64,000 nucleotides of DNA from Mycolicibacterium chubuense (GTDB lineage: Bacteria > Actinomycetota > Actinomycetes > Mycobacteriales > Mycobacteriaceae): assembly GCF_001044255.1 (NCBI RefSeq), contig NZ_JYNX01000019.1, forward strand, positions 1,323 through 65,322, read 5' to 3'. Below the pieces are notes generated by a model. It did no database searches. It was not told the origin of the DNA and saw only the letters and a program-made list of their open reading frames with translations. Position 1 is the stretch's first letter. Every line of letters starts with the position of its first letter. Both the position numbers and the translations under genes were made by a program. This document shows, piece by piece, positions 37,713 through 53,785 of this stretch.

Positions 37713-37823
37713 CGAATCACGTCACCCCTCGTATGCGTCCGGTCACTGAAGCTAACTCGCCATCACGGGTGAAAGACGACTAATCGGCTACGCGATCACT
37801 GCGCGACGTTGCGGACAATTTAG

Positions 37824-37835
37824 GTAGTCGACTAC
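37824..37835. promoter_or_regulatory. Palindrome and possible promoter before the island's plus-strand genes
   Basis: GTAGTCGACTAC is a perfect 12-bp palindrome 73 bp upstream of ATG 37908. It overlaps a possible promoter (TTGCGG at 37809-37814, 17 bases, CTACTC), so it could be an operator controlling the large gene cluster. Confidence 0.4.
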
Positions 37836-37907
37836 TCATGCTCGGGCGAGCTCCTCGTGGTTACGTTCTGAGTTGCTCCAGCCGCCGACGTAATCGAAAG
37901 GTCCACT

Positions 37908-38342
37908 ATGGCCGACACCCTGCCCAACCCCGCCAGTGGCGATACCACCCGCTTTGAAGTCGCCCCCGACGGAATCCTGATTCCCGTTCCCGCGGAGGCA
38001 CCGGCGGGTAAGCCCATTCGCGACGACGCACAGATCACGGTGAGTCCGCTGCGGGCGAGCGCCTACTACGTCGAGGTCTACAACGGACCGCCGGATCCGC
38101 CAAGCGAGATCGGAGACGTCCTCGGCGATGTGCTCAGCGAAGGCGCAACAGAGGCGATCGAGCGAGCCTTCGTCACCGGCGCCGAGAGCTTCGCACTGGC
38201 CTTCCTCGAGAAGACACTGTTCGTCGCCGGGATTCTCGCTGACGTCCTCACGACGTCACCTTTGCTGAGCGAACATTACTTTCGCGGCACCATGGATGAC
38301 GGCACACAGGTCACCTACGTGGTCCTCACACCCAGAGATTGA
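37908..38342 (+). CDS. Unknown protein, first plus-strand gene of the island
   Basis: 144 residues; AAAGG precedes ATG 37908. A Pro/Asp-rich N-terminal half (NPASGDTTRFEVAPDGILIP), then a helical, partly hydrophobic stretch (AIERAFVTGAESFALAFLEK, FVAGILADVLTTS) and a short beta-like end (GTMDDGTQVTYVVLTPRD). No signal peptide. I do not recognise the family. It precedes the large gene run by 220 bp and could be in the same transcript. Confidence 0.6.
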   Translation: MADTLPNPASGDTTRFEVAPDGILIPVPAEAPAGKPIRDDAQITVSPLRASAYYVEVYNGPPDPPSEIGDVLGDVLSEGATEAIERAFVTGAESFALAFLEKTLFVAGILADVLTTSPLLSEHYFRGTMDDGTQVTYVVLTPRD

Positions 38343-38351
38343 GGAGGCGCC

Positions 38352-38549
38352 ATGCCGGCCTGCCACCGCAACACTGGTCGGATCCTCGTGGTTCGATCGT
38401 CGAAGATCGAGACCCGTCGATCATCTGGACGGATCGCCACTGTGCTTGGTGTAATGAGAACCGTCACGGCGTCAGGGGGCCATCGCGCCGGTGTCGGAAG
38501 GGCGGGGCGAATGGGCCGGATCCTTTGTATTCGCAAAGTAATCGAGTAG
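38352..38549 (+). CDS. Possible small basic protein
   Basis: 65 residues (MPACHRNTGRILVVRSSKIE at the start), Arg-rich, no known domain. The reason to list it is a strong site GAGGAGG five bases before ATG 38352, ten bases past the preceding stop. Composition is otherwise not convincingly protein-like, so it may be spurious. Confidence 0.3.
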   Translation: MPACHRNTGRILVVRSSKIETRRSSGRIATVLGVMRTVTASGGHRAGVGRAGRMGRILCIRKVIE

Positions 38550-38561
38550 AAGGCAATTGCC

Positions 38562-39362
38562 TTGCCTACTGCCACTCCCGAAACTCTCGTCGACGTGGTT
38601 CGTGCGATCCTCGTCCAGGCGCAGCAACATGCGGCCGGCGAGGTCGAGCACATCCTCGACCAGATCGAAGGTGACGCCGAGGCCGGCTGGGCCGCGTTGA
38701 AGAAGCTCGTCGACGACAGGCCGGACTGGTCGACCTTGCTACTCCTGATCCTGACCAAGATCCGTGACCTCGACAAGGATCGCATCGCCGTCGGCACCAT
38801 GTCGCATCCCACGTGGAAACGGTTGCTCACGTTGACCTACCACGTGGACGGTGATGTGGACGCGTCGGTGATGCTGGGCCTGGCACTGACCGAGCCAGAC
38901 GCCGCCCACGGCATCCTGCTCAAGTTCAACGGCAGAGTCGATCTGGATCTGGTCGATGACGGTGGCTTCCACGTCAAGCTCTCGTCCGATGGTGACGAAG
39001 CGAGCTGGGAAGTCCCCTTCGGAGCGGCCATCGCAATGCCGAAGCAGCGGGCGGTCGTCGACCTCACCGCCAGCTGGGCACCTGACCTCCACCTCGGCGA
39101 CATCTTCTCGCTGGGTCCGCTGCGTCTGCACGCTCACGTCGACACCAGGACACCGGGGTACCGGACGACATTGAGTCTCGGCGAAAAGGGCCGTGAGGGC
39201 GTAGAAGCGCATCTGAAGACCAAGGACAAGTTGGGATTCCTGGGCAAGATCGTCGACATCGCTCCAATGGATGCCGTCTATTCGCCCAACGTCATGCTCG
39301 CTTCAGGTCAGTCGCCGTCCTTCTCGCTGACTCTTCGCGACGACGAGACGAAAGAGGTTTGA
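38562..39362 (+). CDS. Unknown protein, first of five tightly coupled island genes
   Basis: 266 residues from TTG 38562, supported by AGAAGG eight bases upstream. N-terminal helical region (LVDVVRAILVQAQQHAAGEV, WAALKKLVDDRPDWSTLLLL) and then a beta-rich domain (LTLTYHVDGDVDASVMLGLAL, ILLKFNGRVDLDLVDDGGFHV). The beta part, with alternating strands and Asp-Gly turns, resembles the following DUF6603-like protein in style, so the two may form one structure. One base separates its stop from the next ATG's spacer. No function known. Confidence 0.65.
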   Translation: MPTATPETLVDVVRAILVQAQQHAAGEVEHILDQIEGDAEAGWAALKKLVDDRPDWSTLLLLILTKIRDLDKDRIAVGTMSHPTWKRLLTLTYHVDGDVDASVMLGLALTEPDAAHGILLKFNGRVDLDLVDDGGFHVKLSSDGDEASWEVPFGAAIAMPKQRAVVDLTASWAPDLHLGDIFSLGPLRLHAHVDTRTPGYRTTLSLGEKGREGVEAHLKTKDKLGFLGKIVDIAPMDAVYSPNVMLASGQSPSFSLTLRDDETKEV

Positions 39363-39363
39363 G

Positions 39364-41433
39364 ATGGGCGACTCGTCGATCAGTGTCGGTCTCGAGATCC
39401 TCCCACGTGACATCGCCGGGAACACCCCCACGGTCGAACTGGTGGTCACCGGATCGACTCGCCTGGAGATCTCCGGACTCCGCTTGGCGGTCGATCAGGT
39501 TGGCGCCGGGATTCCCGTCGTTCTGGATCCAGCCGGCGGCTGGCACCTGAGACTGGGCGAACTGCAGATCTACCCGCCCGCCGGCGCCATGGCCAGTATC
39601 GAACTACCAGCGTTCTCCGGCGGCGGCTACCTAGAGCACCTGGATCCCGACGTATGGCGCGGCGCGGTGACGGCCCGCGTCGGACCGGTCGCGGTCAACG
39701 GCCTCCTCATCATCTCCGGGGGCGATGACGGGTTCTCGCTGTTGGTTCTGCTGGCGGGAGAGTTCACTCCACCGATCCAGCTGTCGTTCGGCTTCACGCT
39801 GGTCGGCGTCGGCGGCATGGTCGGCATCAATCGGGGACCGAATGTGAAGGCCCTGACAGCGGCCGCCGGCAGCGGCGACCTGTCGCGGCTGCTCTTCCCG
39901 CAGGACGCCGTCGTCGACGCGCCGCGGCTGCTTCCGGTCCTCGACAACTGCTTTCCTGCTTCCCCCGGCGACTTCATCGTCGGACCCATGCTCAAGCTCG
40001 GCTGGGGCACACCGACTTTCGTGTCGGCGACGATCGGTGTGCTGATGTCCTCCACCGCGGTCGTCGTGGTCGGCCGCGCGGCGATCACCTTACCGTTCGA
40101 GCAGGCAGCGTTGATCCGTCTGGAAGGCCTGCTGCTGGGGATCATCACGCCGTCGTTGGTGATTCTGCAAGCGACACTGGCTAATTCGCACATAGTCGGC
40201 ATCCCGATCGACGGTGAGATCCGATTCCTGAGCCGCAGCGGACCCGGTGCCGTGGTGGCGTTCTCCGCCGGCGGCTTCCACCCGGACTTCACTCCACCGG
40301 AGCACATGACGGGGATGAAGCGGATCGGCACCGAAATCTCCCCTGGCCCGATTCTGCGGGCCCGCCTCGGCGTCTATTTGGCGGTGACGACCAACACGGT
40401 GCAGTTCGGTGCCGAGGCAGAACTGGTCGTCGGTTTCGACGAATTCAACATCAACGGGCACTTCAAATTCGACGCGCTGTTCGTCTTCGACCCGTTCGCA
40501 TTCCAGGCCGACATCAGCGCACGCGTGGCGATCGAGGTCGCCGGCTTCGACGTGGGCTCGGTTGGCATGCGCGGTCACCTCTCCGGGCCCGCTCCGTACC
40601 GGATCAGCGGGCACGCCGAAGTGTCACTGGGGCTCGACGACATCGATGTGGACCTGCCGACGCTGACGTGGGGCGCGTCCAGTGCCCGGCCCCTGCCGCC
40701 GGCCCGCGATCCGGTCGGAGTGCTCGCCGATCAGATCTGGACCGTTGCCAACTGGGCCCCCGGCGATCCGCCGACCCTGCTGTCGCGGCTGCATCCCCGG
40801 CTAGGCGCAGATGTCATCGCCGTGCACCCGATGGGGCAGGTGAGTTTCCGGCAACACGCCGTCCCGATGAACATCCCGCTGCAGCGCATGGACGGGGTAC
40901 CGCTCGCGGAGCCGGTGACGGTCGGCATCACCGCCAAAGATGTCCTACCTAATCAACTGCATTGGCAAACAGTGGAATTCGTACCATCCCAGTTCTTCAC
41001 CTACGACCGACAGAAGGCGCTGTCTTCGGCCGGATTCGTCGACTGCGCGGGCGGCTTCGACTACAAGCCGGAGGCTGCGGTGGTCGCCGCCGACGCCCAG
41101 CCCCGTGAGCCGACACCGGAAGTCAGTGTGCTCGGCGACGGCCAACCATTCTGGCGCCTGATCACCGCGACCCTGCCCGAGGACGTCTTCCGACTGCGTC
41201 GCGATCTGGTGCCGAAAGAGTTGCCGCCCAAAGTCCTGCTGCGCGAACCGGGTCTGGCAGCCATCGCGTCGGTCCACGATCTCGCTGATCACACCGCCGA
41301 CGTGACTGCGGTCGCAGGCATCGCCGGCCTGCCCGGTCACATCGGGATGGCCGCCGGGCTGCTCGACCAACTCGAGGTGGGAGGCCTGGCGGTGTCGAAT
41401 TTGCAGTCCGTTCCGGCGTGGGAGCTGAGCTGA
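39364..41433 (+). CDS. DUF6603-like beta-rich protein
   Basis: 689 residues, ATG one base after the previous stop. Long run of beta strands with repeated Gly turns. The core GFTLVGVGGMVGINR (about residues 143-157) is what I associate with DUF6603, a family of large uncharacterised bacterial proteins; this is from memory and should be tested. Later parts are amphipathic (VQFGAEAELVVGFDEFNINGH) and finish with a helical segment. There is no signal peptide or membrane helix of normal length. Likely structural or surface-layer-like, but that is inference only. Confidence 0.55.
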   Translation: MGDSSISVGLEILPRDIAGNTPTVELVVTGSTRLEISGLRLAVDQVGAGIPVVLDPAGGWHLRLGELQIYPPAGAMASIELPAFSGGGYLEHLDPDVWRGAVTARVGPVAVNGLLIISGGDDGFSLLVLLAGEFTPPIQLSFGFTLVGVGGMVGINRGPNVKALTAAAGSGDLSRLLFPQDAVVDAPRLLPVLDNCFPASPGDFIVGPMLKLGWGTPTFVSATIGVLMSSTAVVVVGRAAITLPFEQAALIRLEGLLLGIITPSLVILQATLANSHIVGIPIDGEIRFLSRSGPGAVVAFSAGGFHPDFTPPEHMTGMKRIGTEISPGPILRARLGVYLAVTTNTVQFGAEAELVVGFDEFNINGHFKFDALFVFDPFAFQADISARVAIEVAGFDVGSVGMRGHLSGPAPYRISGHAEVSLGLDDIDVDLPTLTWGASSARPLPPARDPVGVLADQIWTVANWAPGDPPTLLSRLHPRLGADVIAVHPMGQVSFRQHAVPMNIPLQRMDGVPLAEPVTVGITAKDVLPNQLHWQTVEFVPSQFFTYDRQKALSSAGFVDCAGGFDYKPEAAVVAADAQPREPTPEVSVLGDGQPFWRLITATLPEDVFRLRRDLVPKELPPKVLLREPGLAAIASVHDLADHTADVTAVAGIAGLPGHIGMAAGLLDQLEVGGLAVSNLQSVPAWELS

Positions 41434-41434
41434 C

Positions 41435-44400
41435 ATGACTGACGACACTCTGCAGTTCATCTCGTGGTCGCGGCGCGGTGTCGGCGCCGGGACCACCGCC
41501 GAAGTCGACGGGATTCGGCGTAGCGTCAGCTTGCCTCTCCAGGTCACCGCCGCTGGTCGCCAGGTCGACGCGCCGTCCGCTCCGATCCGGCTGCTGGGGC
41601 CGGCCGACATCGAACCACTCGGGGCGGACTTCGGAATCGTTCGGCGCAGCCCTCGGCCCGACGGTCAACCGGTCGAGCCCAACTTGGTGGCTTGCATCGA
41701 ATTCGACCACCCCGACGTGCCGTGGCTGTTCACCCCGGAGGCGGTCGCCGACGGCAAGCTGAGGCCGTGGGTGATGCTCGTGGTGGCGAAGATGTCCCGT
41801 GAGCGCGAGCGGGAAGCGTTACGGCAAAGCAAGACAACGCCGTACCAGGTGCTCAGCGTGAACGGCGACGAGCTTCCCGACCCGGACAACGCCTGGGCAT
41901 TCGCCCATGTTCAGGCCGTCGCCGCCACTCCCGCTGAGGGTGCGGCCGCGACGCGGGACGACCCGTACTCGCCCGCGGTGCGCTCCCGGCTGCTGTGCCC
42001 CACCCGCCTCGACGAGTGCAGTCGGTACTTCGCAGCGGTGGTTCCGGTCTACGAGGCTGCCCGCCGGCTGGGGGTGGGTGAGGGGGAAGCGCACGGCGGA
42101 TCTCCGATCTGGCAACGCGACGACAACCCGCGGCTGCCGGTCTACGACGGCTGGTTCTTCGAGACCGGCCCGAGAGGGGACTTCGAACAGCTCGCGCGGC
42201 GGCTGTCCCCGCTCACCGGAAAGCAGACCGACGAACTCGGGATCGGCGTCCGCCAGGTCGCTTTCGAGACTCGCGCCGCACTGATGCAGAGGCAGGACGA
42301 CGGCGAATCCGAGATCTACCACGACGTGCTGGCGGTGCCGACCGCCATCACTCGTATCGCCGACCCCGGTCCGTTCGAGCCGCCGAGCGCGACGAACGAC
42401 CCGGCGCCCGAGGTCGACGCCCTGCACTTCCGCCTGAAGCAGCTCGTCGATATCGTCGCCGGCGCCCAGCCCGTGGACCCGATCGTCGGACCGCCGCTGT
42501 ACGGGCAATGGCACGCGTGCACGGACTCGATCGACGAACATCCCGAGAACGGGACGCTCGCGCCGGCCCCAGCGGACAACCGCCAGACCTGGGTGGAGCA
42601 GCTCAACGCCAACCCGTTCCTGCGGATCGCCGCCGGCCTGGGTACCCGGCTGATCCAGCACGACCAGGAAGAGTACGTCGCCGAGGCGTGGCGACAATTG
42701 GCCGATATCGCCGCCGCGAACCGTAGAACCCGCTGGGCAACAATGCTTTCGGCGTCGACAGCGGTGATCCAGAACAAGCTGAAGTTGGCCCCGCCCGCAG
42801 TGGCGCTCCAGACCATGTCCTCGGCGGTCACACGGCTGCGCGCCACCGACGGCCTGGAGACCGTGTTCGCAGAGCTGCAGAAGACCACGCTGCCGGTGGA
42901 GGCCATCAGTGCCGCGCTGACCCGGACCAGTCGGTTCGCGGTACGGATCGGGCGATTCGCCGAGCAGCCTCCGGCGACGTCGGTGGTGGTGTCGGCCGTC
43001 GCCGAGGCAATGGCCGTCAGCGCCAAGGAACTGCTGCCCGCCCGATTCACCGTTGCGCGCGGTGTGGATTCGGCGAAGGTCGGCGATCTGCTTCACCAAT
43101 CGGGTCTGGCCGACGCAGTCCTGCAGACACCGGCCGTGGACATCGCGACCCGGTTGGAGCGCATCGCCGACGTGCCGAGAGCGATGCAGGTGGTCGCAAC
43201 GAAAATCCGCGACGAACCCGGCCTTCAGGGGCCGCAGGTCGGAGTTGAGCTCAGTGACAAACTGCGCGACGTCATCGTCAAGGTCAAGCCGGCCGCCTTC
43301 GAGAAATTCGATGCCGCACGGATCGAGGCAGTCAAAGTCCATGTAGCCAGAATCCAGGCCGCGAAAATCGAAGCCGCCAGGATCGAAGCCGCCGAAGTCG
43401 AAGCGGCGAAGGTGGACGCCGCCAAGATCGACGTGGCCAAAGTCAAGTTCGACGCCGGGAAGTTCGACGCCGGGAAGTTCGACGTTGCCAAGGTGCTCAT
43501 CGAGAAGGACGCGGTCGGCGAAAAGGCTTTTGACAAGAATGCCGCGCTGAAGAAGGTGGAGCTGAACCCGTTCGACGCAAAGGTGCAAAACCTGAAAGGC
43601 GCCGGCGCGTTCGTCCCGGATGCCCCGGTCGATGCCGGGTTTGCGGCGGCCGCCGAGATCCGAGCCGAGGATGTCCACGTGGCCGTCCCAGCGGTAGAGG
43701 ACGTCGCCGCCGAGCAGATGGTGCTGCCCGCACACATCTTCGCCGCGCTCGAGGAGGTGGCCACCGCCGAACCGGAAGCCGGCGCAGAGGCGATCGACTT
43801 CGCGAAGATCCGGATCGTTGACGCCGCTGAGGGTTTCACGCTTGGCACGCAGCTGCTGGGCGCGCCCGGATCGGTCGTGTCCGCGACCGACGGCGGACGC
43901 CGCGCTCTGACCGCCGCAGCGGCGCAGGGAATCAAAGAACTGATGCTCGCCGACATCGGTGACCGACTGCCGTCGGTGGACGCCCAGTTGGGTGCGCTCA
44001 ACGCCGCCGATTCGGCGCTCGTCGAGGCCGAGGTGGCCACGCTGGCGGCCCATCACGTTCCCCTCGGACGCGGCCCGCTGATACCGGACACGATCACGAA
44101 GTTCTCCTTCGACATCGCCGCCAAAATGGTCGAGGAGCTGAGCCCGGTCCGTAACTACGCGAAGTTGTTGAAGTTCGCCAACGTCTTTGCGCCCGGTGCC
44201 GTGTCGCGACGTGACGCGTCCGTCGATTACCCCGACGAACTGTTTCCGGCGATGGCCGCTCCGCTCATCCAGACGCCGTTGGCGACGCGCCTGGAGAAGA
44301 TGGAGCCCGACTGGCTGCTCGGCGGATTGTCCAAGCTTCCGAATAACTCGATCTGCCTGATGGAGATCAACCGTCAGTTCGTCGAGGCACTGCTGGTTGG

Positions 44401-45088
44401 CGCCAACCACGAATTCGGCCGGGAACTGCTGTGGCGCGGCCACCCGACCGATCTGCGCGGGACCTCCTTCCCCAGGTTCTGGGACGGCCCCGACGCGGTC
44501 AGTATCAAGCCGATCTCGAACTGGACCGGTGACCTGGGCACGCACTCCGCGGGCGACATCGACATCGACCTGGTGGTGGTCGTGATCAAGGGCGACCTAC
44601 TGCGCCGATACCCGAACACGCTCATCAGTGCCGAGAAGGGCGTCACCTCCCCGCTGCGAGAGCCGACCGATTTCACCTCCGACGGTCAGGTCGCCAAGGA
44701 GTGGTTCCGCGGATTCATCGGCAGCGACGTGACGTACAGCGTGCTGGGCATCTCGCACGAACGCCTACAGGAGACGGATGGCGACGACGATCGGCACTGC
44801 TGGTACATCTCCCTGCTGGAGCCCTACGACGAACTGCGGTTCGGCCTCGACGAGGGTGACTCGACACCGAACGCCTCGACGGACGGGGTCGACAAGCGCT
44901 ATGACGTGACCGACACCTGGACCTGGCAGGGCACCCACCCCGGTGGTCCGTTGCCGCAGCCACTGCACTTGACCCCCGCCGACCTGCAGTGCCACAACAG
45001 CAGCGCGATCGCCGGGGCCAGCCTGCTGCAGCGGCCCTTCCGGTTGTTGTTGCGCGCCAAGACGTATGTGCCCAAGGAGGACGACTGA
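41435..45088 (+). CDS. Very large unknown protein with five-residue repeats
   Basis: 1217 residues; ATG one base after the preceding stop. N-terminal region beta-rich (SLPLQVTAAGRQVDAPSAPI), a helical middle (about 400-620), a five-residue repeat block (about 628-687, listed separately), an Ala/Glu-rich linker, and a C-terminal domain with NNSICLMEINRQFVEALLVG, RELLWRGHPTDLRGTSFPRF and LVVVVIKGDLLRRYPNTLIS. I have an impression that such C-terminal motifs recur in other large hypothetical bacterial proteins but cannot name a family. The last codons contain the AAGGAGG site for the next gene. Confidence 0.6.
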   Translation: MTDDTLQFISWSRRGVGAGTTAEVDGIRRSVSLPLQVTAAGRQVDAPSAPIRLLGPADIEPLGADFGIVRRSPRPDGQPVEPNLVACIEFDHPDVPWLFTPEAVADGKLRPWVMLVVAKMSREREREALRQSKTTPYQVLSVNGDELPDPDNAWAFAHVQAVAATPAEGAAATRDDPYSPAVRSRLLCPTRLDECSRYFAAVVPVYEAARRLGVGEGEAHGGSPIWQRDDNPRLPVYDGWFFETGPRGDFEQLARRLSPLTGKQTDELGIGVRQVAFETRAALMQRQDDGESEIYHDVLAVPTAITRIADPGPFEPPSATNDPAPEVDALHFRLKQLVDIVAGAQPVDPIVGPPLYGQWHACTDSIDEHPENGTLAPAPADNRQTWVEQLNANPFLRIAAGLGTRLIQHDQEEYVAEAWRQLADIAAANRRTRWATMLSASTAVIQNKLKLAPPAVALQTMSSAVTRLRATDGLETVFAELQKTTLPVEAISAALTRTSRFAVRIGRFAEQPPATSVVVSAVAEAMAVSAKELLPARFTVARGVDSAKVGDLLHQSGLADAVLQTPAVDIATRLERIADVPRAMQVVATKIRDEPGLQGPQVGVELSDKLRDVIVKVKPAAFEKFDAARIEAVKVHVARIQAAKIEAARIEAAEVEAAKVDAAKIDVAKVKFDAGKFDAGKFDVAKVLIEKDAVGEKAFDKNAALKKVELNPFDAKVQNLKGAGAFVPDAPVDAGFAAAAEIRAEDVHVAVPAVEDVAAEQMVLPAHIFAALEEVATAEPEAGAEAIDFAKIRIVDAAEGFTLGTQLLGAPGSVVSATDGGRRALTAAAAQGIKELMLADIGDRLPSVDAQLGALNAADSALVEAEVATLAAHHVPLGRGPLIPDTITKFSFDIAAKMVEELSPVRNYAKLLKFANVFAPGAVSRRDASVDYPDELFPAMAAPLIQTPLATRLEKMEPDWLLGGLSKLPNNSICLMEINRQFVEALLVGANHEFGRELLWRGHPTDLRGTSFPRFWDGPDAVSIKPISNWTGDLGTHSAGDIDIDLVVVVIKGDLLRRYPNTLISAEKGVTSPLREPTDFTSDGQVAKEWFRGFIGSDVTYSVLGISHERLQETDGDDDRHCWYISLLEPYDELRFGLDEGDSTPNASTDGVDKRYDVTDTWTWQGTHPGGPLPQPLHLTPADLQCHNSSAIAGASLLQRPFRLLLRAKTYVPKEDD
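43316..43495 (+). repeat. Pentapeptide-like repeat block inside the 1217-residue protein
   Basis: About twelve consecutive five-residue units: ARIEA, VKVHV, ARIQA, AKIEA, ARIEA, AEVEA, AKVDA, AKIDV, AKVKF, DAGKF, DAGKF, DVAKV. Ile/Val/Phe recurs every fifth residue with Ala two before it, the i and i-2 pattern of pentapeptide-repeat right-handed beta helices, but with Lys/Arg at i-1 where Asp/Asn is usual. Confidence 0.7.
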
Positions 45089-48000
45089 TGCCCGACGCAC
45101 AGGCACCCCCCGAGGCGCTGTGGTCCGACCTCGACTCCTCGGTTCCGATCGCGCTCCTGCCGGTGCGCCTGGAAACACGCTACGGCACCAGGTCGGCGAC
45201 TGGGCCCGACGGCACCCCCGTCGTGCTGCCGGTCCTGCGCGTCCGCATCTATCCCGACGACATCTCGATCAGTACCTCGGGTACCGGGGTCACCCCGGCG
45301 GAACGTGCCGGGGCGAAAACGTTCTGGGACAACCAGAACCCCGAACCCCTCGATCAGCAGGAAAGGGACCGCGAAACGGCCGTCCCCGGCACGGTGGAGC
45401 ACCGGCGCAGAAGCGCCTGGGAGGTGCTGGTCCGCACCGTCGGCGCGGGCCGGGCGGGTTATGTCGCACGATCCTGCAAACCGGGGGCGCCGCCGGTCGC
45501 TGATCTGGAGGAAACACCCCGAATGGCGCGCCTGCTCCCGGACAGCTGGGTGATCGTCGGCAGGTTGAACGGCCAGCAGGTATTCGCCACGCATGTCCCC
45601 CGTCCGTCGCAGGACCTTCCCGTCAGTCGTCTGGTCACCGACCTCAGCGCGGAGGATCCCCTACTTGTCACAGGAGACAGCACAGTCCGGTGGCTGACGG
45701 ACTTCGACAGCGCCGTGGGCGTGGGCATGGCCGCCGTGATCGATCTGGCCACCGTCGAGGACATCGCCAACGGCGTACTGCCGGCGGTCGTCACGAAGGG
45801 GCTCGACTCGCTGGTCGTCATCGGCGTCTCCGGGGCCGCCGCGCCCCCGCAGCAGGCCGACGCGCTGACCGCGCTGCTGACCTCCCACGCTGACGACGAC
45901 CAAGCCGCCTTCGTCGCGCCCGGCACGCCGACCAACAACCTGACCGGTCAGCCGTCGGGCTGGACCTCGGACGGCGACATCTTCGCCGGCTATGCGCGCG
46001 TCGTGGGAGACCCGCCGTTGACACCGGCGGCCACCGAGGTGCCCGCGCTGCGGGGCGGGGCCACCGACGGCGAGATCTTCGAGGCCGCTCTCGGCCTACC
46101 TGCCGGTGTCACGGCCGGCCTGGACGGGTCCGGCGCGACGGAGCAGCGCAACGCCCGCAACATGTCGACGGCACTGTTCCCGGTGACCATCGGCGAGGTG
46201 ATCGGAACACTCAACCGGCCGGCTGCCGAACGATACGACGAGGCAACGGCGTTGGCGGTGATGTCCTCGGTCGTCCCGTTCGCCCGCGAGCACTGCGCGT
46301 CGTTCGTCCGCGGCCGCGGCCCGCTGCCGGTACTGCGCATCGGCCGCCAGCCCTACGGAATTCTGCCGATCACGTCCTGGAAGCGATGGCTGCCACTGCC
46401 CTCGGAACCTGCACACCTGGACCGGCTCGGCCAGATCCTGCGCGTGCTGCGGCCCTGCTGGGAGCAGGCGGCCAAGCACGTCAGCGCGCTCACCGCGGAC
46501 ACCGCCAACTCGGCAATGCTGGGCAGAATCATGATGCACGGGCCGGTACCGCACCCCGGCGCCTACCGGATCCGGGGTGCCAGCGGGCTGGCACGCAGCT
46601 TTCTGAACACGATCGCCTCGGTCGATGCGGTGGGCGCCGACGCCGACCCGCCGTCGAAGTTCGCAGCGGCCGTCGTTGGGCAGGACTGGGCGGTCCGCGA
46701 CATCCAGATCGCCATGTACCGGGACCTGCTCGCCGTGACCATGGGGGATCTGCTGCGCTACGGCCAGTTACAGCACATGCGCCTCGACGACGACGCCGAC
46801 CCGCTGACCGCGCCGGTGGCGTCCACCAACACCAAACGTGTGGGCTGGGAGACGCCGATGAAGTACCTGGGCCGGCTGGCCAAGGCCCATCCCGCCGACG
46901 AGAACCGACCGCGCGACCTGTTGTTCGTCCTCGTCGAACACGCGCTGGCGCGCGCCGGCGAGCTCGACATCCAGGCGTTCATCGGCAAGTTCGACATCAC
47001 GAGGTTCAACACCATCATGGCGGTCGTACCCGAGGTTGCGGCCAGCACTCTGTCCGCGGGTACCGATGTCCGCCTGGCCTACGACGCCAAGATCGTCGAC
47101 CTGGCCGGTGTCGGGGGTTTCGCGAACAATCCCGCCGTCGCGGACATCAGCGTCGCCCAACTCATCACGACGCAGGATCCGGAGCTGCGCAAGATCCGCT
47201 TCGATATGTTCGAGATCGGCACCGGCCAGGTGCCCGGGCTCGACGGGACCCGCCAGGCGGTTCTCGATCTCAGCGCGGCTAATCTGACAGACGCGGACTA
47301 CACGCGGTTGACCGGTGAGACGCTGGCGTGTGCCGCCAACCGCCTCGATGCCTGGGTGACATCGATTGCCGCCCAGCGGTTGTCGACTATGCGTGACAGC
47401 AACCCCACCGGTGTTCACATCGGTAGCTGGGGTCTGCTCGTCGACGTGCGCCCGTGGCCGGCAGCGCCGATCCCCGATATCGCGGCGATCTCGCCGGCCT
47501 GGCCGAACATTCCGGTCGACGAGGTGCCGGTCGGCTGGGCGGAAGCGTTGGCGGCGCAGGGCGTCGAGGTGCCCGCGGTCGTCAAACCGGATCGCCAAGT
47601 CGGGTACGTGCACGCGCCGTCGCTCACCCACGCCGTCACCGCAGGCATCCTCCGGGCCGCGGAACTCGCCCACCGGGGTGACGGATCATCGCTGGCCTCC
47701 ATCGATTTGACGTCGTCCCGGGTGCGCGCCGCCCAGGAGATCATCCAGTCGATGTCCAACGGCCAGCCGTTCGGCGCGCTGCTGGGCTACCGCTTGGAAC
47801 GCGCGCTGGGCCATGCGCACCCGGACGCGATCACCGCGCTGCGCAAGGCCTATCCGCAGCGGCGCGCGACCGGTGCCTTCGGCAAAGAGGCCGCCGGTGA
47901 CGACGCCATGGTACCCGCGGAGGTCGTCGACGGTTACGAGGTGTTCCAGCACAGCCAAACCGCCGCTAGGATCGCACAACTGGAGGGCGACAGCGACTTT

Positions 48001-49728
48001 CAGGACGCGATGGATGAGCTGAAGTTCATCGTCGACGCCGTCGCCGACGTGGTGGTGGCCGAGGGTGTGCACACCATCTCCTCGGGGCGGCACGCGGCCG
48101 CGGGAGCATTGTTCAAGGCGACCGCAGAGGCGCTACAGCCGCCCGAGCTCAGCGTCGGCACCGAGCCGCGCAACGGCACGACCATCACCAACAAGGTAGT
48201 CATCGGTGTCGCGCCCGGCGACGGCGGTGCCGCCGGATGGACTCGCGGCCGGCGGGCCGCCCTGGCTCCGGCGGCCGAACGGTGGGCACAGTCGATCCTC
48301 GGACCCGCGGCGCAGTGGGTCATCGAGGGGGAGGCCGGCGCGACGGTCGGGCTGGACACCCTCGGGGTCAGCGCGCTGGACGTGCTCGAGGAAAGCTACA
48401 CCGACCACGGCGGTGTCCGAGTGTTCGACGCACGCCTGGGCTTCACACCGACCGGCGAGGCCTACGAAGCATTGGTCGCGCTGGCCGGCTCCGCCCGTGC
48501 GGTGCTGGCCAACAGCCGCCCACTGGTGCCGGCGGACGTGAACAATCCCGAGACGGCGCAGACGAAGTCCGCCGAACCAGTGCACGTCAGCCCCGTCGCG
48601 CCGCCGAGCGCCGCTCACCTCGCGGAACTCCGCGAGAACGTCGTGCAGGCGCTGACGGACCTCGGCGACGCGGTCACCGCGGTTGTCACCGCCGCATCTT
48701 TGGACGGAATACACCCGGACGACCCGGCCGAGGCCGGGCTCTTCACCACATTTGCCGAGTTCGGGCTGCCGGGCAGCCGGCCAGCCGCCGCACCGACCGT
48801 CGCCGACGCGGTAACCGCGGCCGGGGCGGCCGGAGTGGTGATCCGCGACGTCGACACCATCCTCGACCGCGGCCTGCAAGCTGTCCCCGCTGAGCGCCGC
48901 CCGGCGGACCCTGACCGTGCCCAGAACGTGAATGCCATTGCCGGCTCGGGTGATTTCTCGACGCTGGTCGAGGTGGTCCGCCGCATCGGTGGTGACGCGG
49001 TGGTGCCCACCATCGCAGTCCACAGTCAGCTCGGTCAGGCCCACATCGATACGCCGCGCGCCGGCGACGCCGAGCGTTGGCTCACCGGGATGAGCAGGGT
49101 ACGGCGGGCGATCGCCGGCTTCGACGATCTGCGCCTGTTCGTCGAGGCCCACGGAACGGCGCCCGACCCGCTGACCGTCTACCAGTTCCCGCTGCCGCAA
49201 CCCGGCGACGGCGAGGATGTGGACTACTGGCTCGGGGGACCCGCACCCGCCGTCGACGATGCGCAGCAGAACGCGTGGCGAAAGCACAAACGGCTCAAGC
49301 AACCGCACACTCACATCGTCGCGGCGGGAGACCCGGCGGTGATGCACGCGGAGACGGTTCGCGGGTTCGTCGTCGACGAGTCGGTGGAAACGATTCCGTT
49401 CGACACCGCCACCACCGGTGCCGCACTGCATTACGACGCGCCCAACGCGCGCGCACCCCAATCGATCCTGCTGGCGGTGCACCCGGACCCGGCGACACCG
49501 TGGGATTGGCGCCTTTTGGTCGAGATCGCCGAGGAAGCGCTGGCGTTGGCCAAGATCCGCAGTGTGGAGTTGGACGATCTGGCCGGCACCGCTATCGACG
49601 AGTACTTCCCGCTGACCTATGTCCGCGACGACGAGGATCCGAACACCACCGCGCTCGAGGAGCTCACCAAGCAACCGATCTGGCTCGGCGCGCTGCTCAA
49701 CGCCAACCGCATGGTGTTGAAAGGATAA
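45088..49728 (+). CDS. Giant unknown protein (1546 residues) of the island operon
   Basis: ATG 45088 overlaps the previous stop (TGATG) and has AAGGAGG seven bases upstream. The start SVPIALLPVRLETRYGTR and VLRVRIYPDDISISTSGTGV is distinctive; further on, PLPVLRIGRQPYGILPITSW (about residue 410), several mixed alpha/beta regions, and a C-terminal DPATPWDWRLLVEIAEEALAL and EYFPLTYVRDDED. No catalytic motif, signal peptide or membrane helix is obvious. I cannot assign a family. Size, tight coupling and shared style with its neighbours suggest that the products act as one large assembly. Confidence 0.6.
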   Translation: MPDAQAPPEALWSDLDSSVPIALLPVRLETRYGTRSATGPDGTPVVLPVLRVRIYPDDISISTSGTGVTPAERAGAKTFWDNQNPEPLDQQERDRETAVPGTVEHRRRSAWEVLVRTVGAGRAGYVARSCKPGAPPVADLEETPRMARLLPDSWVIVGRLNGQQVFATHVPRPSQDLPVSRLVTDLSAEDPLLVTGDSTVRWLTDFDSAVGVGMAAVIDLATVEDIANGVLPAVVTKGLDSLVVIGVSGAAAPPQQADALTALLTSHADDDQAAFVAPGTPTNNLTGQPSGWTSDGDIFAGYARVVGDPPLTPAATEVPALRGGATDGEIFEAALGLPAGVTAGLDGSGATEQRNARNMSTALFPVTIGEVIGTLNRPAAERYDEATALAVMSSVVPFAREHCASFVRGRGPLPVLRIGRQPYGILPITSWKRWLPLPSEPAHLDRLGQILRVLRPCWEQAAKHVSALTADTANSAMLGRIMMHGPVPHPGAYRIRGASGLARSFLNTIASVDAVGADADPPSKFAAAVVGQDWAVRDIQIAMYRDLLAVTMGDLLRYGQLQHMRLDDDADPLTAPVASTNTKRVGWETPMKYLGRLAKAHPADENRPRDLLFVLVEHALARAGELDIQAFIGKFDITRFNTIMAVVPEVAASTLSAGTDVRLAYDAKIVDLAGVGGFANNPAVADISVAQLITTQDPELRKIRFDMFEIGTGQVPGLDGTRQAVLDLSAANLTDADYTRLTGETLACAANRLDAWVTSIAAQRLSTMRDSNPTGVHIGSWGLLVDVRPWPAAPIPDIAAISPAWPNIPVDEVPVGWAEALAAQGVEVPAVVKPDRQVGYVHAPSLTHAVTAGILRAAELAHRGDGSSLASIDLTSSRVRAAQEIIQSMSNGQPFGALLGYRLERALGHAHPDAITALRKAYPQRRATGAFGKEAAGDDAMVPAEVVDGYEVFQHSQTAARIAQLEGDSDFQDAMDELKFIVDAVADVVVAEGVHTISSGRHAAAGALFKATAEALQPPELSVGTEPRNGTTITNKVVIGVAPGDGGAAGWTRGRRAALAPAAERWAQSILGPAAQWVIEGEAGATVGLDTLGVSALDVLEESYTDHGGVRVFDARLGFTPTGEAYEALVALAGSARAVLANSRPLVPADVNNPETAQTKSAEPVHVSPVAPPSAAHLAELRENVVQALTDLGDAVTAVVTAASLDGIHPDDPAEAGLFTTFAEFGLPGSRPAAAPTVADAVTAAGAAGVVIRDVDTILDRGLQAVPAERRPADPDRAQNVNAIAGSGDFSTLVEVVRRIGGDAVVPTIAVHSQLGQAHIDTPRAGDAERWLTGMSRVRRAIAGFDDLRLFVEAHGTAPDPLTVYQFPLPQPGDGEDVDYWLGGPAPAVDDAQQNAWRKHKRLKQPHTHIVAAGDPAVMHAETVRGFVVDESVETIPFDTATTGAALHYDAPNARAPQSILLAVHPDPATPWDWRLLVEIAEEALALAKIRSVELDDLAGTAIDEYFPLTYVRDDEDPNTTALEELTKQPIWLGALLNANRMVLKG

Positions 49729-49731
49729 GTG

Positions 49732-51471
49732 ATGGCACTTCTTCCGATCTGGTCGCGCGTGGAGCCGCACGCGTTCACCAGCGATATCGACTCCGGCCTG
49801 GCTGCCGAGATCGCCGATCCGCTGTGGATGGTGCTGCGGCAGTGGCAGTTAGGAGAGCTGCATGGTGATGACTCCGGCTCTCCGGCGGCGGTCGACATCT
49901 CGGTGAGCCACACCCCGTTCACGCGATATCGGCTGGGCTCCGCAGGCGAGGCCAAGCCTCTGGACGGTGTGGCGGGACCCATCGAGGCAGTCGTCGAGCG
50001 TGAGCCGGAGATCCGGCTGGGCGGCTGGACGCCGTGGTCGGTCGCGGTCCGCGCGGGCCGCCGGCTCAGCCGCATCCTGACCGAGGACGGATTACCCGGC
50101 GTCGCCGCACGGTTCGCCGACGATGAGCGCACCCGGTTCAACGCCAGCCGCATCGACAAAGAGCCCCCGCCGGAGGAGCCGGCGCACGCGAAGGCCCGGC
50201 CCGCGGTGCAGGGCGTCGACGATCACCGCTACCGGGCGCTGCTCACCGGCCGTGGCAAGATGATCGACGGGGTGGCAGTCCTGGAGACGGTCGCGGCGGG
50301 GCCCGTCGACCTCGAGATCGTCGGCGACGCCGATCCCGACGCTGTCGCAGCCGCGATCCAGCGGTGGTCGGAGGAGATACACGCCGAATGGGGGGTGACC
50401 ACCGAAACCCCGCAATCAGCGGCGTGGGATCCGGAGCGGATGGAATACGGCTTTTCGCTTGCCGCCCCGCCGCTTTCCGGCGGGGATGGTGAGATCGTGC
50501 TGCGGGCGGCCGAATACGACGGCACCGGGGTGCGCTGGGACACGGTGGATCTCGACGCTGCTTCGGAGCCGCACGGTGCGGCCGGGGACGCAGGCGCCGA
50601 GACGCGGGTGCGGTCGCTGCTGCCCAGTGCCCTGCGCTACGCGGGCATGCCCGCTGACAGGTTCTGGGAATTCGAGGACGCCGCGGTGGCGCTGGGTCGG
50701 GTGCGCAGCGGCCCGACGGATCTGGTGAAAATGGTCGCCGTTGACTTCGCGATCGTCTACAGCCCGGACTGGCATCTGGTGCCGGTCGAGGTACCCGTCG
50801 GGAGTGTGGCACGGGTCGACTGGATGGTGGTGCGGGACACGTTCGGGGTGGCGACGCTGGTCGGGTCCACCGCCACGCAAGCGGCCGACGGTGCCGGCCG
50901 GCTGTTCCAGCCCGCGAATCTCAGCGGCGAGGGCGACAATCCCGTGCTGGTGGTGCTGCCGTCGGCGCTGGGGGCCCAGACCTCCGATCCGCTGGAAGAC
51001 ATTGCGCTGCAACGCGATGAGATGGCCAACTTGGCGTGGTCCATCGAGAAGCTGGTGCTGGGTCCGTCGGGACGTCCGGTGTCACGCGAGTGGTTCCCGA
51101 CCGACTTCGATCTTCCCGCGGCGACCTCTGAGGAGCCGTCCGAGCTGGTGTGGCGGCTGGCTACCAGGGTGGCCAATCCGTGGACACCTCTGGTCGCGGT
51201 GCTCGACGAGCCCGGGATCCTGCGCAGAGCACGGATCTTGGACACCGAGACGACCGAGCTGCGCAGCGCGCAGAGCCTCCTGCTCTCCGGTGAGCACGAT
51301 GTCAGGGACGAGGAGGTCACCCGCGTGGGCCTGCAGTTGCGGATGGTGCAACAGCGAGCGCGCACCTCCGATGGAGCCACCACGGTGTGGCGGAGCCGGG
51401 AAAAGCGGCCATGGAAGGGTGAGGCTTCGTCTGGTCTGCGATTCGATGCGACCACCCCGACGGCGGGCTGA
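49732..51471 (+). CDS. Unknown protein, last plus-strand gene of the island operon
   Basis: 579 residues from ATG 49732 (AAAGGA six bases upstream), three bases past the preceding stop. Opening MALLPIWSRVEPHAFTSDID and DPLWMVLRQWQLGELHGDDS, then RYAGMPADRFWEFEDAAVAL and FAIVYSPDWHLVPVEVPVGS in the middle, and a basic C-terminus (TVWRSREKRPWKGE). Trp-rich, soluble, no signal peptide. Family unknown to me; cohesive with the 1217- and 1546-residue proteins by position. Convergent with the next gene. Confidence 0.6.
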   Translation: MALLPIWSRVEPHAFTSDIDSGLAAEIADPLWMVLRQWQLGELHGDDSGSPAAVDISVSHTPFTRYRLGSAGEAKPLDGVAGPIEAVVEREPEIRLGGWTPWSVAVRAGRRLSRILTEDGLPGVAARFADDERTRFNASRIDKEPPPEEPAHAKARPAVQGVDDHRYRALLTGRGKMIDGVAVLETVAAGPVDLEIVGDADPDAVAAAIQRWSEEIHAEWGVTTETPQSAAWDPERMEYGFSLAAPPLSGGDGEIVLRAAEYDGTGVRWDTVDLDAASEPHGAAGDAGAETRVRSLLPSALRYAGMPADRFWEFEDAAVALGRVRSGPTDLVKMVAVDFAIVYSPDWHLVPVEVPVGSVARVDWMVVRDTFGVATLVGSTATQAADGAGRLFQPANLSGEGDNPVLVVLPSALGAQTSDPLEDIALQRDEMANLAWSIEKLVLGPSGRPVSREWFPTDFDLPAATSEEPSELVWRLATRVANPWTPLVAVLDEPGILRRARILDTETTELRSAQSLLLSGEHDVRDEEVTRVGLQLRMVQQRARTSDGATTVWRSREKRPWKGEASSGLRFDATTPTAG

Positions 51472-51482
51472 CTTCCCTGCGA

Positions 51483-52064
51483 TCAGGCGACCAATGCCGG
51501 CACCTTGAATACGGACTCTGCTGTGTGCGGTGTGTGCTCGTCATATTCGAATTTCACGTGTGCGAGCAGGTAGGTGACGTCCGCGGAAATGGTTGTCGTG
51601 AAGGTGATCTGCTCGGTGACTCCGGGCTCGACGAAAATGTAGTTCCAGGGTACGAGGTCCGTCTTGAGAATCCTTTCGAATTGGACCCGCGCGGTCCCCT
51701 TGATGAACGTGAAGGGCTCGTCCTTAATCACCCTGGCAGTCAGGGTGACCGGTTGGATCGTTTGCCGAACGTTCCCAGCGTTTCGAGCTGTCACGACGAA
51801 GGTGACGAGGATCCGGTCAGCCCGTAGTCCGTGGAATTGGCAGCCTATTCGCAGTTCGATGTGAGGATCGTTGATGCGGTGCAGTACTTCCCGCTCGACT
51901 CGCCGCCGGTCCTCTTGCTCCTCGAGCGCCTCTTTGGCGCGCTCGTCCTGCACCCTGAGGCTGCGGTTGATCAACAGACCGATTAGAGCCACGGCAACCG
52001 GAGTCGCGATGGCCACAATCAGTTTGACGATTTCCAGGCTGTTCCAGACATGCTGATCGCTCAC
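51483..52064 (-). CDS. Single-span membrane protein with Ig/beta-like domain
   Basis: 193 residues from GTG 52064, with GGAGG seven bases upstream; the longer reading overlaps the upstream hydrolase-like gene and is rejected. Helix IVKLIVAIATPVAVALIGLLI (about 10-30), a charged coiled segment (DERAKEALEEQEDRRRVERE), then beta strands (ILVTFVVTARNAGNVRQTIQ, GVTEQITFTTTISADVTYLL) resembling an immunoglobulin-like fold. GC is lower than the genome. Placed 14 bases after the hydrolase-like gene, so the two are probably co-transcribed. Confidence 0.6.
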   Translation of the reverse strand: MSDQHVWNSLEIVKLIVAIATPVAVALIGLLINRSLRVQDERAKEALEEQEDRRRVEREVLHRINDPHIELRIGCQFHGLRADRILVTFVVTARNAGNVRQTIQPVTLTARVIKDEPFTFIKGTARVQFERILKTDLVPWNYIFVEPGVTEQITFTTTISADVTYLLAHVKFEYDEHTPHTAESVFKVPALVA

Positions 52065-52078
52065 TGTCGGCCTCCAGG

Positions 52079-53182
52079 TCAGCCGGCCCGCTCGGCCGCG
52101 ATCTTCATCATCGCCTGCGGGATGCCCGCATGCACCTGCAGTCGCGCGGTCTGCGGGTTCGGGTCGAATGATGCCGCCCACGGCCCGCCCCATCGCTCCC
52201 GCGGGAGAGGAAAGATGTTCTGCGCCGCCTGCGCAGGAATGTTGTTGGCAGCGGATTGTTGCGCCTTCACGACGTGACCCGCGGGGCCGGTCAGTTGTTG
52301 GGATAGATTGCTGTAGCTGGAGAACCCGCCGTCGAAATCGATGACCCCTGCGAGGCGCGGGCCGAGGTTGGTGCGAGTCCGGAACTGATGGGAGTAAGTG
52401 ATCCCGGAACTGAAACTCGACACAACCACGCTGCTGATGGTCAGGTGCGGTGCGCCGACGGACATGCCTGTTGCGAGGCGGCCGAGGATGCAGCCCAGAT
52501 AGTTGGCCCACCGCTGAGGGAAGATGCCACAATCGGCGGCTGCGGCCTGAGTCATCAGGGGCATCACCAGGATTCGATCGCTGGCAGAGGCGCAGAACTG
52601 CGACCCGAAGCTGTCGGAAAGGTAGTGGAAGACGTCGCGGAAGGAGCCGAGCCCGTGGTACTCGCCGTCCGGGTGGCCTGCCTGTGCAGGTGTCGGGTGA
52701 AAGAAGATGTGCACCCGGTCATATCGCAATGCGCCTTCGGGAACCAGGACGCCGAACCAGCGCGGCACACTGTGCTCGTTGAGCTGGAAGTAGTGCATCG
52801 CGCCGGCTCCGGCGACCCCGGCCCACTCGAACACGAAATCGCTGACCAGCGAGGCCTCGACGGGCGCCCAGGTGGTGGAGTCCACTGTCGTCGCCAGTGC
52901 GCCGTCGACCAATTCGGTGATGCCCACTTCATCCGGGAAGAGGATCGCGTTGAGCCGGGCGATCGTGTTGCCGGCCGGGTCGACACGGCCGTCAGGAGCC
53001 TTCATCCCCTGAAAGACCTGAAACGCTCGGATCGCGTCGGTGAGCCCGTCGATACTCATTGGGACGCCGAAGATTCCCCCGTTGTCGGGGCCGACGGTGA
53101 CCAGCGCGCCTCCGATGACGGCTACATCGAGTGGCGCGTTAGCAGCGTTCGCGCCCACACCGGCGCCGATGGCGATCCCCAT
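52079..53182 (-). CDS. Putative alpha/beta hydrolase with N-terminal peptidoglycan-binding-like domain
   Basis: 367 residues from ATG 53182. Residues about 20-80 (GPDNGGIFGVPMSIDGLTDA, FQVFQGMKAPDGRVDPAGNT) look like the PG-binding-like module seen in secreted lysozyme-type proteins and type VI secretion cargo. The rest resembles a lipase/esterase: LRYDRVHIFFHP strand, then ISSVVVSSFSSGITYSHQF, where S-F-S-S-G (Ser258 candidate) fits a nucleophile elbow after a beta strand, and VIDFDGGF as a possible acid. No signal peptide. Both assignments rest on motif reading. It is the only island gene with an enzyme-like signature, so it could be the cargo or effector. Confidence 0.5.
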   Translation of the reverse strand: MGIAIGAGVGANAANAPLDVAVIGGALVTVGPDNGGIFGVPMSIDGLTDAIRAFQVFQGMKAPDGRVDPAGNTIARLNAILFPDEVGITELVDGALATTVDSTTWAPVEASLVSDFVFEWAGVAGAGAMHYFQLNEHSVPRWFGVLVPEGALRYDRVHIFFHPTPAQAGHPDGEYHGLGSFRDVFHYLSDSFGSQFCASASDRILVMPLMTQAAAADCGIFPQRWANYLGCILGRLATGMSVGAPHLTISSVVVSSFSSGITYSHQFRTRTNLGPRLAGVIDFDGGFSSYSNLSQQLTGPAGHVVKAQQSAANNIPAQAAQNIFPLPRERWGGPWAASFDPNPQTARLQVHAGIPQAMMKIAAERAG

Positions 53183-53508
53183 GCGGGCTCCCCCCATTGT
53201 TCGAGTCTCGCATCGCGGCGTTCTCATCGTAACGCTCGGTCAGCGGGGTCAATCGAAAATTGAGCGGTAGTGCTCTGGCCGTTCTCGTTGGGACTGCAGC
53301 CTTGGCGAGGGGGGCGCCGTACTGCCACCTCTGCCAGCGTCAACAGCGCGCCATTGCTCATCGACGAGCCAACTGGCACTGCCCCGCTCGACTACCTCCA
53401 GCAGTCCTCGGCTTACCGAGGTGATGCTGCAGGTCGTCCTTGTTGAACCTCCACCGAAGCGACCGACGGCTTGGTCGCAGATCCCTGAATCGATGACGGG
53501 ACGCGAGC

Positions 53509-53660: not shown

Positions 53661-53702
53661 CTGCTGCCGGTCGATATTTCACACGGGCGTAATGCCACAT
53701 GC

Positions 53703-53731: not shown

Positions 53732-53785
53732 TGAGCCAGTGCCGTCTTTCCCCGGGCTGCACCACCCCGACAGAGGAGACGTCTC

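What the first reader, a model, noticed from the sequence alone, without database searches (positions are those of the whole stretch)
38562..51471. Uncharacterised five-gene operon of giant proteins (candidate new system)
Five plus-strand genes of 266, 689, 1217, 1546 and 579 residues are joined with gaps of 1, 1, -1 and 3 bases, a 12.9-kb strictly coupled unit. None has a motif I can link to a known machine; one appears DUF6603-like. The ordered sizes, beta-rich and repeat-rich composition and lack of signal peptides suggest a large cytoplasmic or non-classically exported assembly. No phage tail sheath, tube or baseplate gene is seen, so it is not a standard contractile system.
Basis: partly seen in the sequence, partly recalled or inferred. 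Interest (0 to 1): 0.88.

Follow-up and report, generated by a model that had tools for sequence, protein, structure and literature searches.

The report
Widespread four-gene module with swappable enzymes
Four giant proteins of unknown function are encoded side by side in the same order in bacteria and archaea, next to an enzyme gene that keeps being exchanged, which looks like an undescribed machine for carrying or delivering enzymes.

Summary
In detail: five coupled plus-strand genes at 38562-51471. It is a conserved system. Genes 2-5 (a DUF6603 protein, two giants, a ~600-residue protein) recur in the same order and strand in 63 of 80 fetched loci, in 10 bacterial phyla, and on haloarchaeal plasmids; 16 of the other 17 are cut by contig ends. 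Gene 1 was found only in the window's clade.

The gene before the module is often a swapped enzyme, rarely with a signal peptide: PhoD-like phosphatase, M64 peptidase, trypsin-like protease, phospholipase D, galactose-oxidase-like. On a gene-4 tree eight states of this position need at least 16 changes. In the window's clade 4 of 10 loci instead have linked genes with cell-wall domains. Here the module lies on a ~16.7-kb insertion behind jetC, absent from a same-genus genome. Its gene x6 shares its first 79 residues with one other gene, beside the module in another genome; the rest differs.

Best reading: a four-protein assembly that carries exchangeable hydrolases outward. System: near certain. 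Delivery: inferred (0.45). No activity was tested; fold comparison was unavailable.

The parts
37008..53600 (.). Inserted island at the 3' end of jetC (16,668 bases between the two matches; right border approximate, 53.5-53.68 kb)
   Evidence: Same-genus genome G311 (L124) aligns to window 28204-37007 and 53676-57004 with 24 bases between the two matches
53504..53596 (+). Degenerate second copy of the jetC 3' end at the right border of the island
   Evidence: 92% identity over 88 bp (53509-53596) to the jetC 3' end at 36741-36828; 87% over 93 bp to jetC of G311
36948..37712 (-). 254-aa ORF with hydrophobic N-terminus at the left border; role unknown
   Evidence: No Pfam or NCBIfam match above cut-off; hydrophobic N-terminus by eye; no relative among genes called in the fetched loci
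37908..38342 (+). 144-aa ORF (g0) upstream of gene 1; possible cargo or accessory, unproven
   Evidence: No match in Pfam, NCBIfam, PHROGs, none among genes of the fetched loci
38562..39362 (+). gene 1 (g1, 266 aa); found only in the window's clade
   Evidence: Aligned in 9 genomes, window included; weak profile match to residues ~280-404 of a long DUF6603 protein
39364..41433 (+). gene 2 (g2, 689 aa): DUF6603 protein, predicted long run of amphipathic strands
   Evidence: PF20248 E 3.2e-85; model of long homologue; strand alternation, 0 of 5000 shuffles as high
41435..45088 (+). gene 3 (g3, 1217 aa): conserved N and C blocks, variable middle; in 16 of 90 relatives or pieces the middle is strongly hydrophobic
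   Evidence: Profile of 48 sequences; no Pfam, NCBIfam or PDB-sequence match
43235..43528 (+). Ala/Lys/Glu/Ile-rich stretch of gene 3 (residues 601-698)
   Evidence: Sequence; weak PHROG tape-measure hit here, taken as composition
45088..49728 (+). gene 4 (g4, 1546 aa): largest core protein; conserved G-x-Q-P-Y-G-x-L-P and R-x-D-A-W-x-T-S
   Evidence: 370 of 450 pattern hits in genome contigs encode a relative; alignments A1, A5; no Pfam or NCBIfam match
49732..51471 (+). gene 5 (g5, 579 aa): conserved D-P-L-W-x-x-x-R-Q-W-Q-x-G-E, predicted mixed alpha/beta
   Evidence: Alignments A2, A3; model pLDDT 82.0, pTM 0.79; no Pfam, NCBIfam or PDB-sequence match
51483..52064 (-). 193-aa ORF with hydrophobic N-terminus between gene 5 and x6; possible immunity or accessory, unproven
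   Evidence: Hydrophobic N-terminus by eye; no relative among genes of the fetched loci
52079..53182 (-). x6 (367 aa): probable cargo; N-terminal ~80-aa domain shared with a module-linked gene of another genome, different second half (serine-hydrolase-like S-x-S-x-G by eye only)
   Evidence: 46% identity over 79 aa to L023:4164-5081; the domain is in 2 of 296 phylum genomes, both beside the module; PG_binding_1 E 0.0019, under the cut-off

Best explanation
A horizontally moving four-protein module (g2 DUF6603, g3, g4, g5) that builds a large assembly and carries an exchangeable enzyme lacking a signal peptide, to deliver it to, or display it at, a cell surface. Shown: conserved order, swapped enzymes with mostly kept catalytic motifs, linked cell-wall-domain genes in part of the window's clade, insertion as an island, and a shared N-terminal domain on two linked genes with different second halves. 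Inferred: that the proteins form one complex; that g2's long amphipathic strands form a barrel or hydrophobic trough; that g3 touches the membrane in lineages with the hydrophobic middle; that the enzymes are cargo exported by the assembly; that the target is another cell.
For: Order and coupling: g2-g3-g4-g5 on one strand in 75 of 95 records examined and 63 of the 80 loci; 16 of the other 17 lose genes at contig ends. Spacing of 10 bases or less: g2-g3 52 of 71, g3-g4 55 of 87, g4-g5 56 of 82. Co-occurrence in 396 genomes of the phylum (taken to be the same draw in both searches): DUF6603 12, g5 10, both 8 (Fisher p 1.6e-12). Swapped enzyme: of 64 same-strand upstream genes, 17 cluster as PhoD-like, 7 M64, 7 trypsin-like, 3 PLD/CarboxypepD_reg, 3 galactose-oxidase-like, 9 g1, 18 others (names); 8 states need at least 16 changes on the g4 tree of 51 rows, M64 alone 7. 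Motifs kept: all three PhoD patterns 11 of 17, HExxH 6 of 7, GDSG[AS] 7 of 7, HKD 3 of 3. Window clade: M23, SLT, phage-tail-lysozyme or PG-binding domains above Pfam cut-off in genes linked to the module in L023, L041, L042, L047. Cargo-like architecture. Further enzymes: an S8 peptidase gene overlapping the operon, DUF2235 and PLD genes upstream on the other strand in L017. N-terminal hydrophobic segments: g4 0 of 99 and g5 0 of 84 pieces, g2 1 of 84, g3 1 of 90 (a truncated one), 1 of 66 upstream genes.
Against: No export, binding or killing was measured. No shared docking domain was found among the upstream families: 66 profile pairs, best probability 7.7% (several families there are single sequences). 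The enzyme states are clustered on the tree (0 of 200 shuffles as low as 16), so exchange is repeated but not free. L018, a full-length member of the PhoD cluster, has none of the three motifs; the trypsin His pattern was found in 1 of 7, a second HKD in 1 of 3. In the window the module has no upstream enzyme; x6 is on the opposite strand and its activity is a by-eye guess. No wall domain was seen near L040, L043, L044, L064 of the window's clade; those of L046 and of the window are weak. The x6 domain is in only 2 of the 5 genomes of that sample that carry g4. No immunity gene was identified. Fold comparison could not be run.
Confidence: 0.45

Rival explanations
1. Surface scaffold: the four proteins form an extracellular complex on the producer's own surface that displays hydrolases for nutrient release, like a cellulosome in logic, without injection into other cells.
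For: Many upstream enzymes match families that are usually extracellular (PhoD, M64, galactose oxidase; localisation recalled). Haloarchaeal g4 is annotated 'BGTF surface domain-containing protein' and g5 'lamin tail domain-containing protein'.
Against: N-terminal hydrophobic segments are all but absent in core and upstream genes (hydropathy only); no dockerin-type domain among the 23 families found in 42 upstream genes.
Confidence: 0.25
2. Intracellular lipid- or envelope-handling complex: g2 is a hydrophobic trough that moves or holds lipids, the linked enzymes modify lipids or wall precursors.
For: Long run of amphipathic strands in the g2 model (0 of 5000 shuffles as strong in L050 and in the window); hydrophobic middle in 16 of 90 g3; PhoD, PLD and DUF2235 relatives can be lipid-active (recalled).
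Against: Proteases and galactose-oxidase-like proteins swap in the same place, which lipid handling does not explain; patchy distribution (DUF6603 in 12 of 396 genomes) speaks against housekeeping.
Confidence: 0.15
3. Remnant or relative of a phage tail or contractile injection particle.
For: Phage-tail-lysozyme and SLT domains beside two window-clade modules; weak PHROG tape-measure hit on g3.
Against: The PHROG hit sits on the repetitive stretch only; no other PHROG hit below E 0.01 for seven island proteins; no relative in viral contigs by one g5 pattern and one unverified contig among 50,697 phage records.
Confidence: 0.08
4. Chance neighbourhood of unrelated genes.
For: None beyond missing annotation.
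Confidence: 0.01

Closest known systems
DUF6603 (Pfam PF20248)
   Same: g2 is a full member.
   Different: Pfam gives no function, and 0 papers of the 5.39-million library hold the name. DUF6603 proteins also occur without a recognisable module: those of L027 and L028 match Pfam strongly but the module's own g2 profile weakly, with no g3-g5 found.
Polymorphic toxin and effector systems (T6SS, eCIS, T7SS cargo; recalled)
   Same: One conserved carrier-like core with exchanged hydrolases; x6 and the L023 gene share an N-terminal domain with different second halves; wall-domain genes without N-terminal hydrophobic segment by eye.
   Different: No known carrier family matched; g3, g4 and g5 match no Pfam or NCBIfam family; no immunity gene shown.
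Contractile injection systems and phage tails
   Same: Large co-directional operon with lysozyme-type neighbours in some relatives.
   Different: No sheath, tube, baseplate or ATPase match among the island proteins scanned.
Bridge-like lipid transfer proteins (AsmA/TamB, VPS13; recalled)
   Same: Long run of amphipathic strands after a helical N-terminus in the g2 model.
   Different: No Pfam AsmA or chorein match to g2; fold not compared.

Membership tests
DUF6603 (PF20248) | Pfam model above gathering score | tested here: met
   287.1 bits against 27
Contractile injection system / phage tail | Sheath, tube, baseplate or tail proteins | tested here: not met
   Nine proteins of the island against Pfam and NCBIfam, seven against PHROGs: only a tape-measure hit on the repetitive stretch of g3. 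Not every gene of the 64-kb window was scanned.
Polymorphic toxin system | Conserved N-terminal domain joined to different C-terminal domains | tested here: inconclusive
   Met for one pair, x6 and the L023 gene; no shared domain among the upstream enzyme families
Polymorphic toxin system | Cognate immunity gene | not tested
   Two small ORFs with hydrophobic N-termini lie on the island; role unknown
Polymorphic toxin system | Exchange of the catalytic gene between related loci | tested here: met
   At least 16 changes of 8 states on the g4 tree of 51 rows
Known anti-phage defence system | PADLOC model match | tested here: not met
   g1-g5 and x6: 0 families at E 0.01
Tc/ABC toxin | TcA, TcB or TcC family domains | tested here: not met
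   No Pfam or NCBIfam match in g1-g5 apart from DUF6603
Bridge-like lipid transfer protein | Repeating beta-groove fold | tested here: inconclusive
   Strand pattern fits; fold search never ran
Classically secreted complex | Signal peptides | tested here: not met
   Hydropathy scan of N-termini: g4 0 of 99, g5 0 of 84, g2 1 of 84, g3 1 of 90, upstream genes 1 of 66; no dedicated predictor

The most novel reading that the evidence does not exclude
The module is a new class of protein-delivery machine, unrelated to the numbered secretion systems, contractile particles and Tc toxins, shared by bacteria and archaea, in which a DUF6603 beta-trough or barrel, a membrane-touching g3 and the giants g4 and g5 load exchangeable hydrolases and place them outside the cell or into neighbours.
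Probability: 0.3. Interest if true: 0.95.

Novelty: categorically new. Interest (0 to 1): 0.86.

Why it matters
A four-gene module seen complete in 10 bacterial phyla and on haloarchaeal plasmids, with 370 gene-4 relatives confirmed in one scan, has no described function that I could find and almost no annotation. The exchange of active-looking hydrolases beside a constant core is what one expects of a carrier. If it delivers enzymes, it would be an undescribed export or weapon system; if it displays them, a new exoenzyme complex. Either way the function of DUF6603 becomes testable, and the annotation of many giant 'hypothetical proteins' would follow.

Tried and rejected
Rejected: phage origin. 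The PHROG tape-measure hit on g3 (E 7.3e-7), which lies on the repetitive stretch. Homology g5-g4 (17% probability) and g3-g4 (0.2%) by profile comparison; an apparent g5 match inside many g4 genes I put down to a profile polluted by fused genes and dropped. PDB-sequence matches: A6 hits (best E 7e-5) are designed helical bundles, coiled pieces of surface adhesins and the like on the helical N-terminus, with weak OspA hits (E 0.3-0.9) on the sheet; A5 hits (best E 0.003) lie on its helical part; A3 and A4 none. Gene 1 was not searched against the PDB. A first gene caller by ORF length made wrong calls in high-GC loci and was replaced; names of upstream families rest (old caller), extended by clustering of the new calls. 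Downstream genes: 70 of 147 flanking ORFs, picked by me, were scanned, no family in more than 2 (25 of 139 families shown). Paper searches gave nothing relevant (listings with starts of abstracts seen, no paper read). The first genome-contig scan with the single protein found nothing.

Limits: the 80 loci are the best-scoring of 370, so rates are not population rates; L029 and L061 are one locus seen twice (zero branch); several upstream genes are pieces at a locus edge (L022, L061, L070, L071, L074, L075, L080, L090); some upstream gaps are large (L019, L078, L094). The tree is a quick one with a long branch (L026). The galactose-oxidase patterns were uninformative.

Full report
Observation. 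Gene 1 plausibly starts at TTG 38562 with AGAAGG upstream. Gene 2 is a DUF6603 protein (E 3.2e-85); genes 1, 3, 4 and 5 match nothing in Pfam or NCBIfam, and no convincing PHROG family. Searches of solved structures by sequence, with genes 4 and 2 alone and with profiles of long DUF6603 proteins and of genes 5, 4 and 3, gave nothing convincing; gene 1 was not searched. The window's genome has one copy of gene 4.

Relatives. tblastn of gene 4 found matches in 12 plasmid records, including Streptomyces, Rhizobium, Nocardia, Gemmatirosa and haloarchaea, at about 27-32% identity. Seven neighbourhoods with annotation show DUF6603, giant, giant, ~500-900-aa protein in that order; in Rhizobium (L019) both giants are split in two. 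A profile of gene 4 matched 450 stretches in genome contigs, of which 370 encode a relative; the best 80 were kept. They come from 13 bacterial phyla (30 Actinomycetota, 13 Pseudomonadota, 10 Bacteroidota, 7 Acidobacteriota, others) and one archaeal phylum, one unassigned. Identity to the window is 23-48% for g4 and 23-55% for g5 in the aligned sets.

Order. With profiles of g2 to g5 on six-frame translations, 75 of 95 records (window, 14 earlier loci, 80 new ones) show g2-g3-g4-g5 on one strand, haloarchaeal plasmids L020 and L022 among them. Of the 80 new loci 63 do, in 10 bacterial phyla plus one locus without phylum; 16 of the other 17 lack genes at a contig end, and one, an archaeal bin (L059), shows g4, g5, another gene, g2. 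L027 and L028 match Pfam DUF6603 strongly but the module profile weakly and show no g3-g5, so DUF6603 also lives outside the module. Gaps are mostly 10 bases or less. In 396 genomes of the window's phylum DUF6603 occurs in 12, g5 in 10, both in 8 (taken to be the same draw; Fisher p 1.6e-12).

Gene 1. It aligns in nine genomes, window included, all of the window's clade; g2 is short there (about 650-700 residues) where many other loci have about 1120-1220. A profile comparison places gene 1 weakly (30% probability, E 5e-4) on residues 280-404 of the long DUF6603 protein, before the conserved part, so gene 1 may be its split-off front. That is suggestive only.

The exchanged gene. Of 64 same-strand genes next upstream of g2, 9 are gene 1; the rest cluster as PhoD-like (17), M64 (7), trypsin-like related to NAL1 (7), PLD/CarboxypepD_reg (3), galactose-oxidase-like (3), three pairs, and 12 singles; 16 loci had no such gene or were cut (names, where of 42 scanned 9 matched PhoD, 6 M64, 3 galactose-oxidase E-set, 3 Nal1_C, 2 PLDc_2). 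Often the stop and start overlap by four bases. Catalytic patterns are mostly kept: all three PhoD patterns in 11 of 17 (four of the misses are pieces at a locus edge, one has two of three, and full-length L018 has none), HExxH in 6 of 7, the trypsin nucleophile in 7 of 7 but its His pattern in 1 of 7, HKD in 3 of 3 with a second copy in 1. On the g4 tree of 51 rows, eight states need at least 16 changes; M64 alone needs 7, PLD 3; a starred sister pair differs in enzyme (L118 M64, L109 galactose-oxidase-like). The states are nevertheless clustered more than in shuffles (0 of 200 as low). The ten g1 rows form one starred group that mixes Actinomycetota with Rhizobium and Microvirga, a sign of transfer between phyla.

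The window's clade. In 4 of its 10 rows linked genes carry peptidoglycan-acting or -binding domains above Pfam cut-off: L042 has an M23/PG-binding gene and another PG-binding gene directly upstream; L041 a four-repeat hemopexin protein and an M23 gene directly downstream; L023 an SLT/PG-binding gene and another PG-binding gene upstream; L047 a phage-tail-lysozyme plus LGFP protein directly downstream. L023, L041 and, on the opposite strand, L046 also share one protein region of unnamed family; the window's x6 has a PG-binding match below cut-off. Nothing of the kind was noticed in L040, L043 and L044; in L064 the downstream side is not available. The first His of the M23 motif appears to be missing in L042.

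The island. A same-genus genome (G311) carries the window's flanks 28204-37007 and 53676-57004 almost back to back, with 24 bases between, so about 16.7 kb are inserted behind jetC here. A degenerate second copy of the jetC 3' end marks the right border. DUF6603 is absent from the other 36 same-genus genomes. Besides g1-g5 the island holds g0, two ORFs with hydrophobic N-termini and x6. x6 shares 46% identity over 79 residues of its N-terminus with the gene just downstream of the module in G288, while the rest differs. That domain occurs in 2 of 296 phylum genomes, both beside the module (5 genomes of such a sample carry g4), once in the window's genome, and in no plasmid record or other fetched locus. 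This is the pattern of a loading domain with exchanged catalytic parts, but it rests on two examples.

Structure. AlphaFold2 of a long DUF6603 homologue (L050, 1153 aa, 40 sequences): pLDDT 76.0, pTM 0.52; helices over residues 14-240, then a long run of strands from about 267 to 893. The 27 longer strands that I measured alternate in hydropathy far more than shuffled ones, in L050 and in the 20 of them that map without gaps to the window (0 of 5000 each). This fits a barrel or a hydrophobic trough; the geometry was not seen. g5 of the window: pLDDT 82.0, pTM 0.79, mixed alpha/beta. In 16 of 90 g3 proteins or pieces there is a strongly hydrophobic segment, by eye often a hairpin in the middle; the window's has none.

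Reading. The four genes are a real, apparently undescribed, mobile system; I hold this at about 0.97. That it carries exchangeable hydrolases is the simplest account of the swapped neighbours; delivery outside the cell would explain why wall-domain genes without obvious signal peptides sit beside it in part of the window's clade. Display on the own surface is the main rival, favoured by the haloarchaeal annotations. No paper naming DUF6603 is in the library, and three searches on related terms listed nothing relevant.

Noticed in passing
window 31465-37006: Wadjet genes jetA, jetB, jetC directly upstream of the island (PADLOC); they lie in the stretch shared with G311, not in the module.
   Followed up: partly
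L066, L068, L070, L074, L075, L077, L105: An extra 380-400-aa gene sits between g2 and g3 in these actinobacterial loci.
   Followed up: no
L053, L057, L062, L086, L089, L091, L092, L095, L102, L103, L106, L109, L113, L118 and others, mid g3: Strongly hydrophobic stretch in the middle of g3, by eye often two adjacent segments, as if a membrane hairpin were inserted into a soluble protein.
   Followed up: partly
L021 (MT835531.1): A record named Bacteriophage sp. from human faeces carries g3-g5 and the end of g2; it is marked unverified, has no annotation and may be a bacterial contig.
   Followed up: no
L020, L022: Haloarchaeal copies have much longer g4 (2322 and 3225 aa), annotated with BGTF surface domain, and g5 annotated with lamin tail domain.
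   Followed up: no
L120:23162-28338: In a Nocardia plasmid an S8 peptidase gene and another gene follow the operon with overlapping ends.
   Followed up: no
window 44989-49728: Gene 4 has an open extension upstream of ATG 45088, inside the end of gene 3.
   Followed up: no
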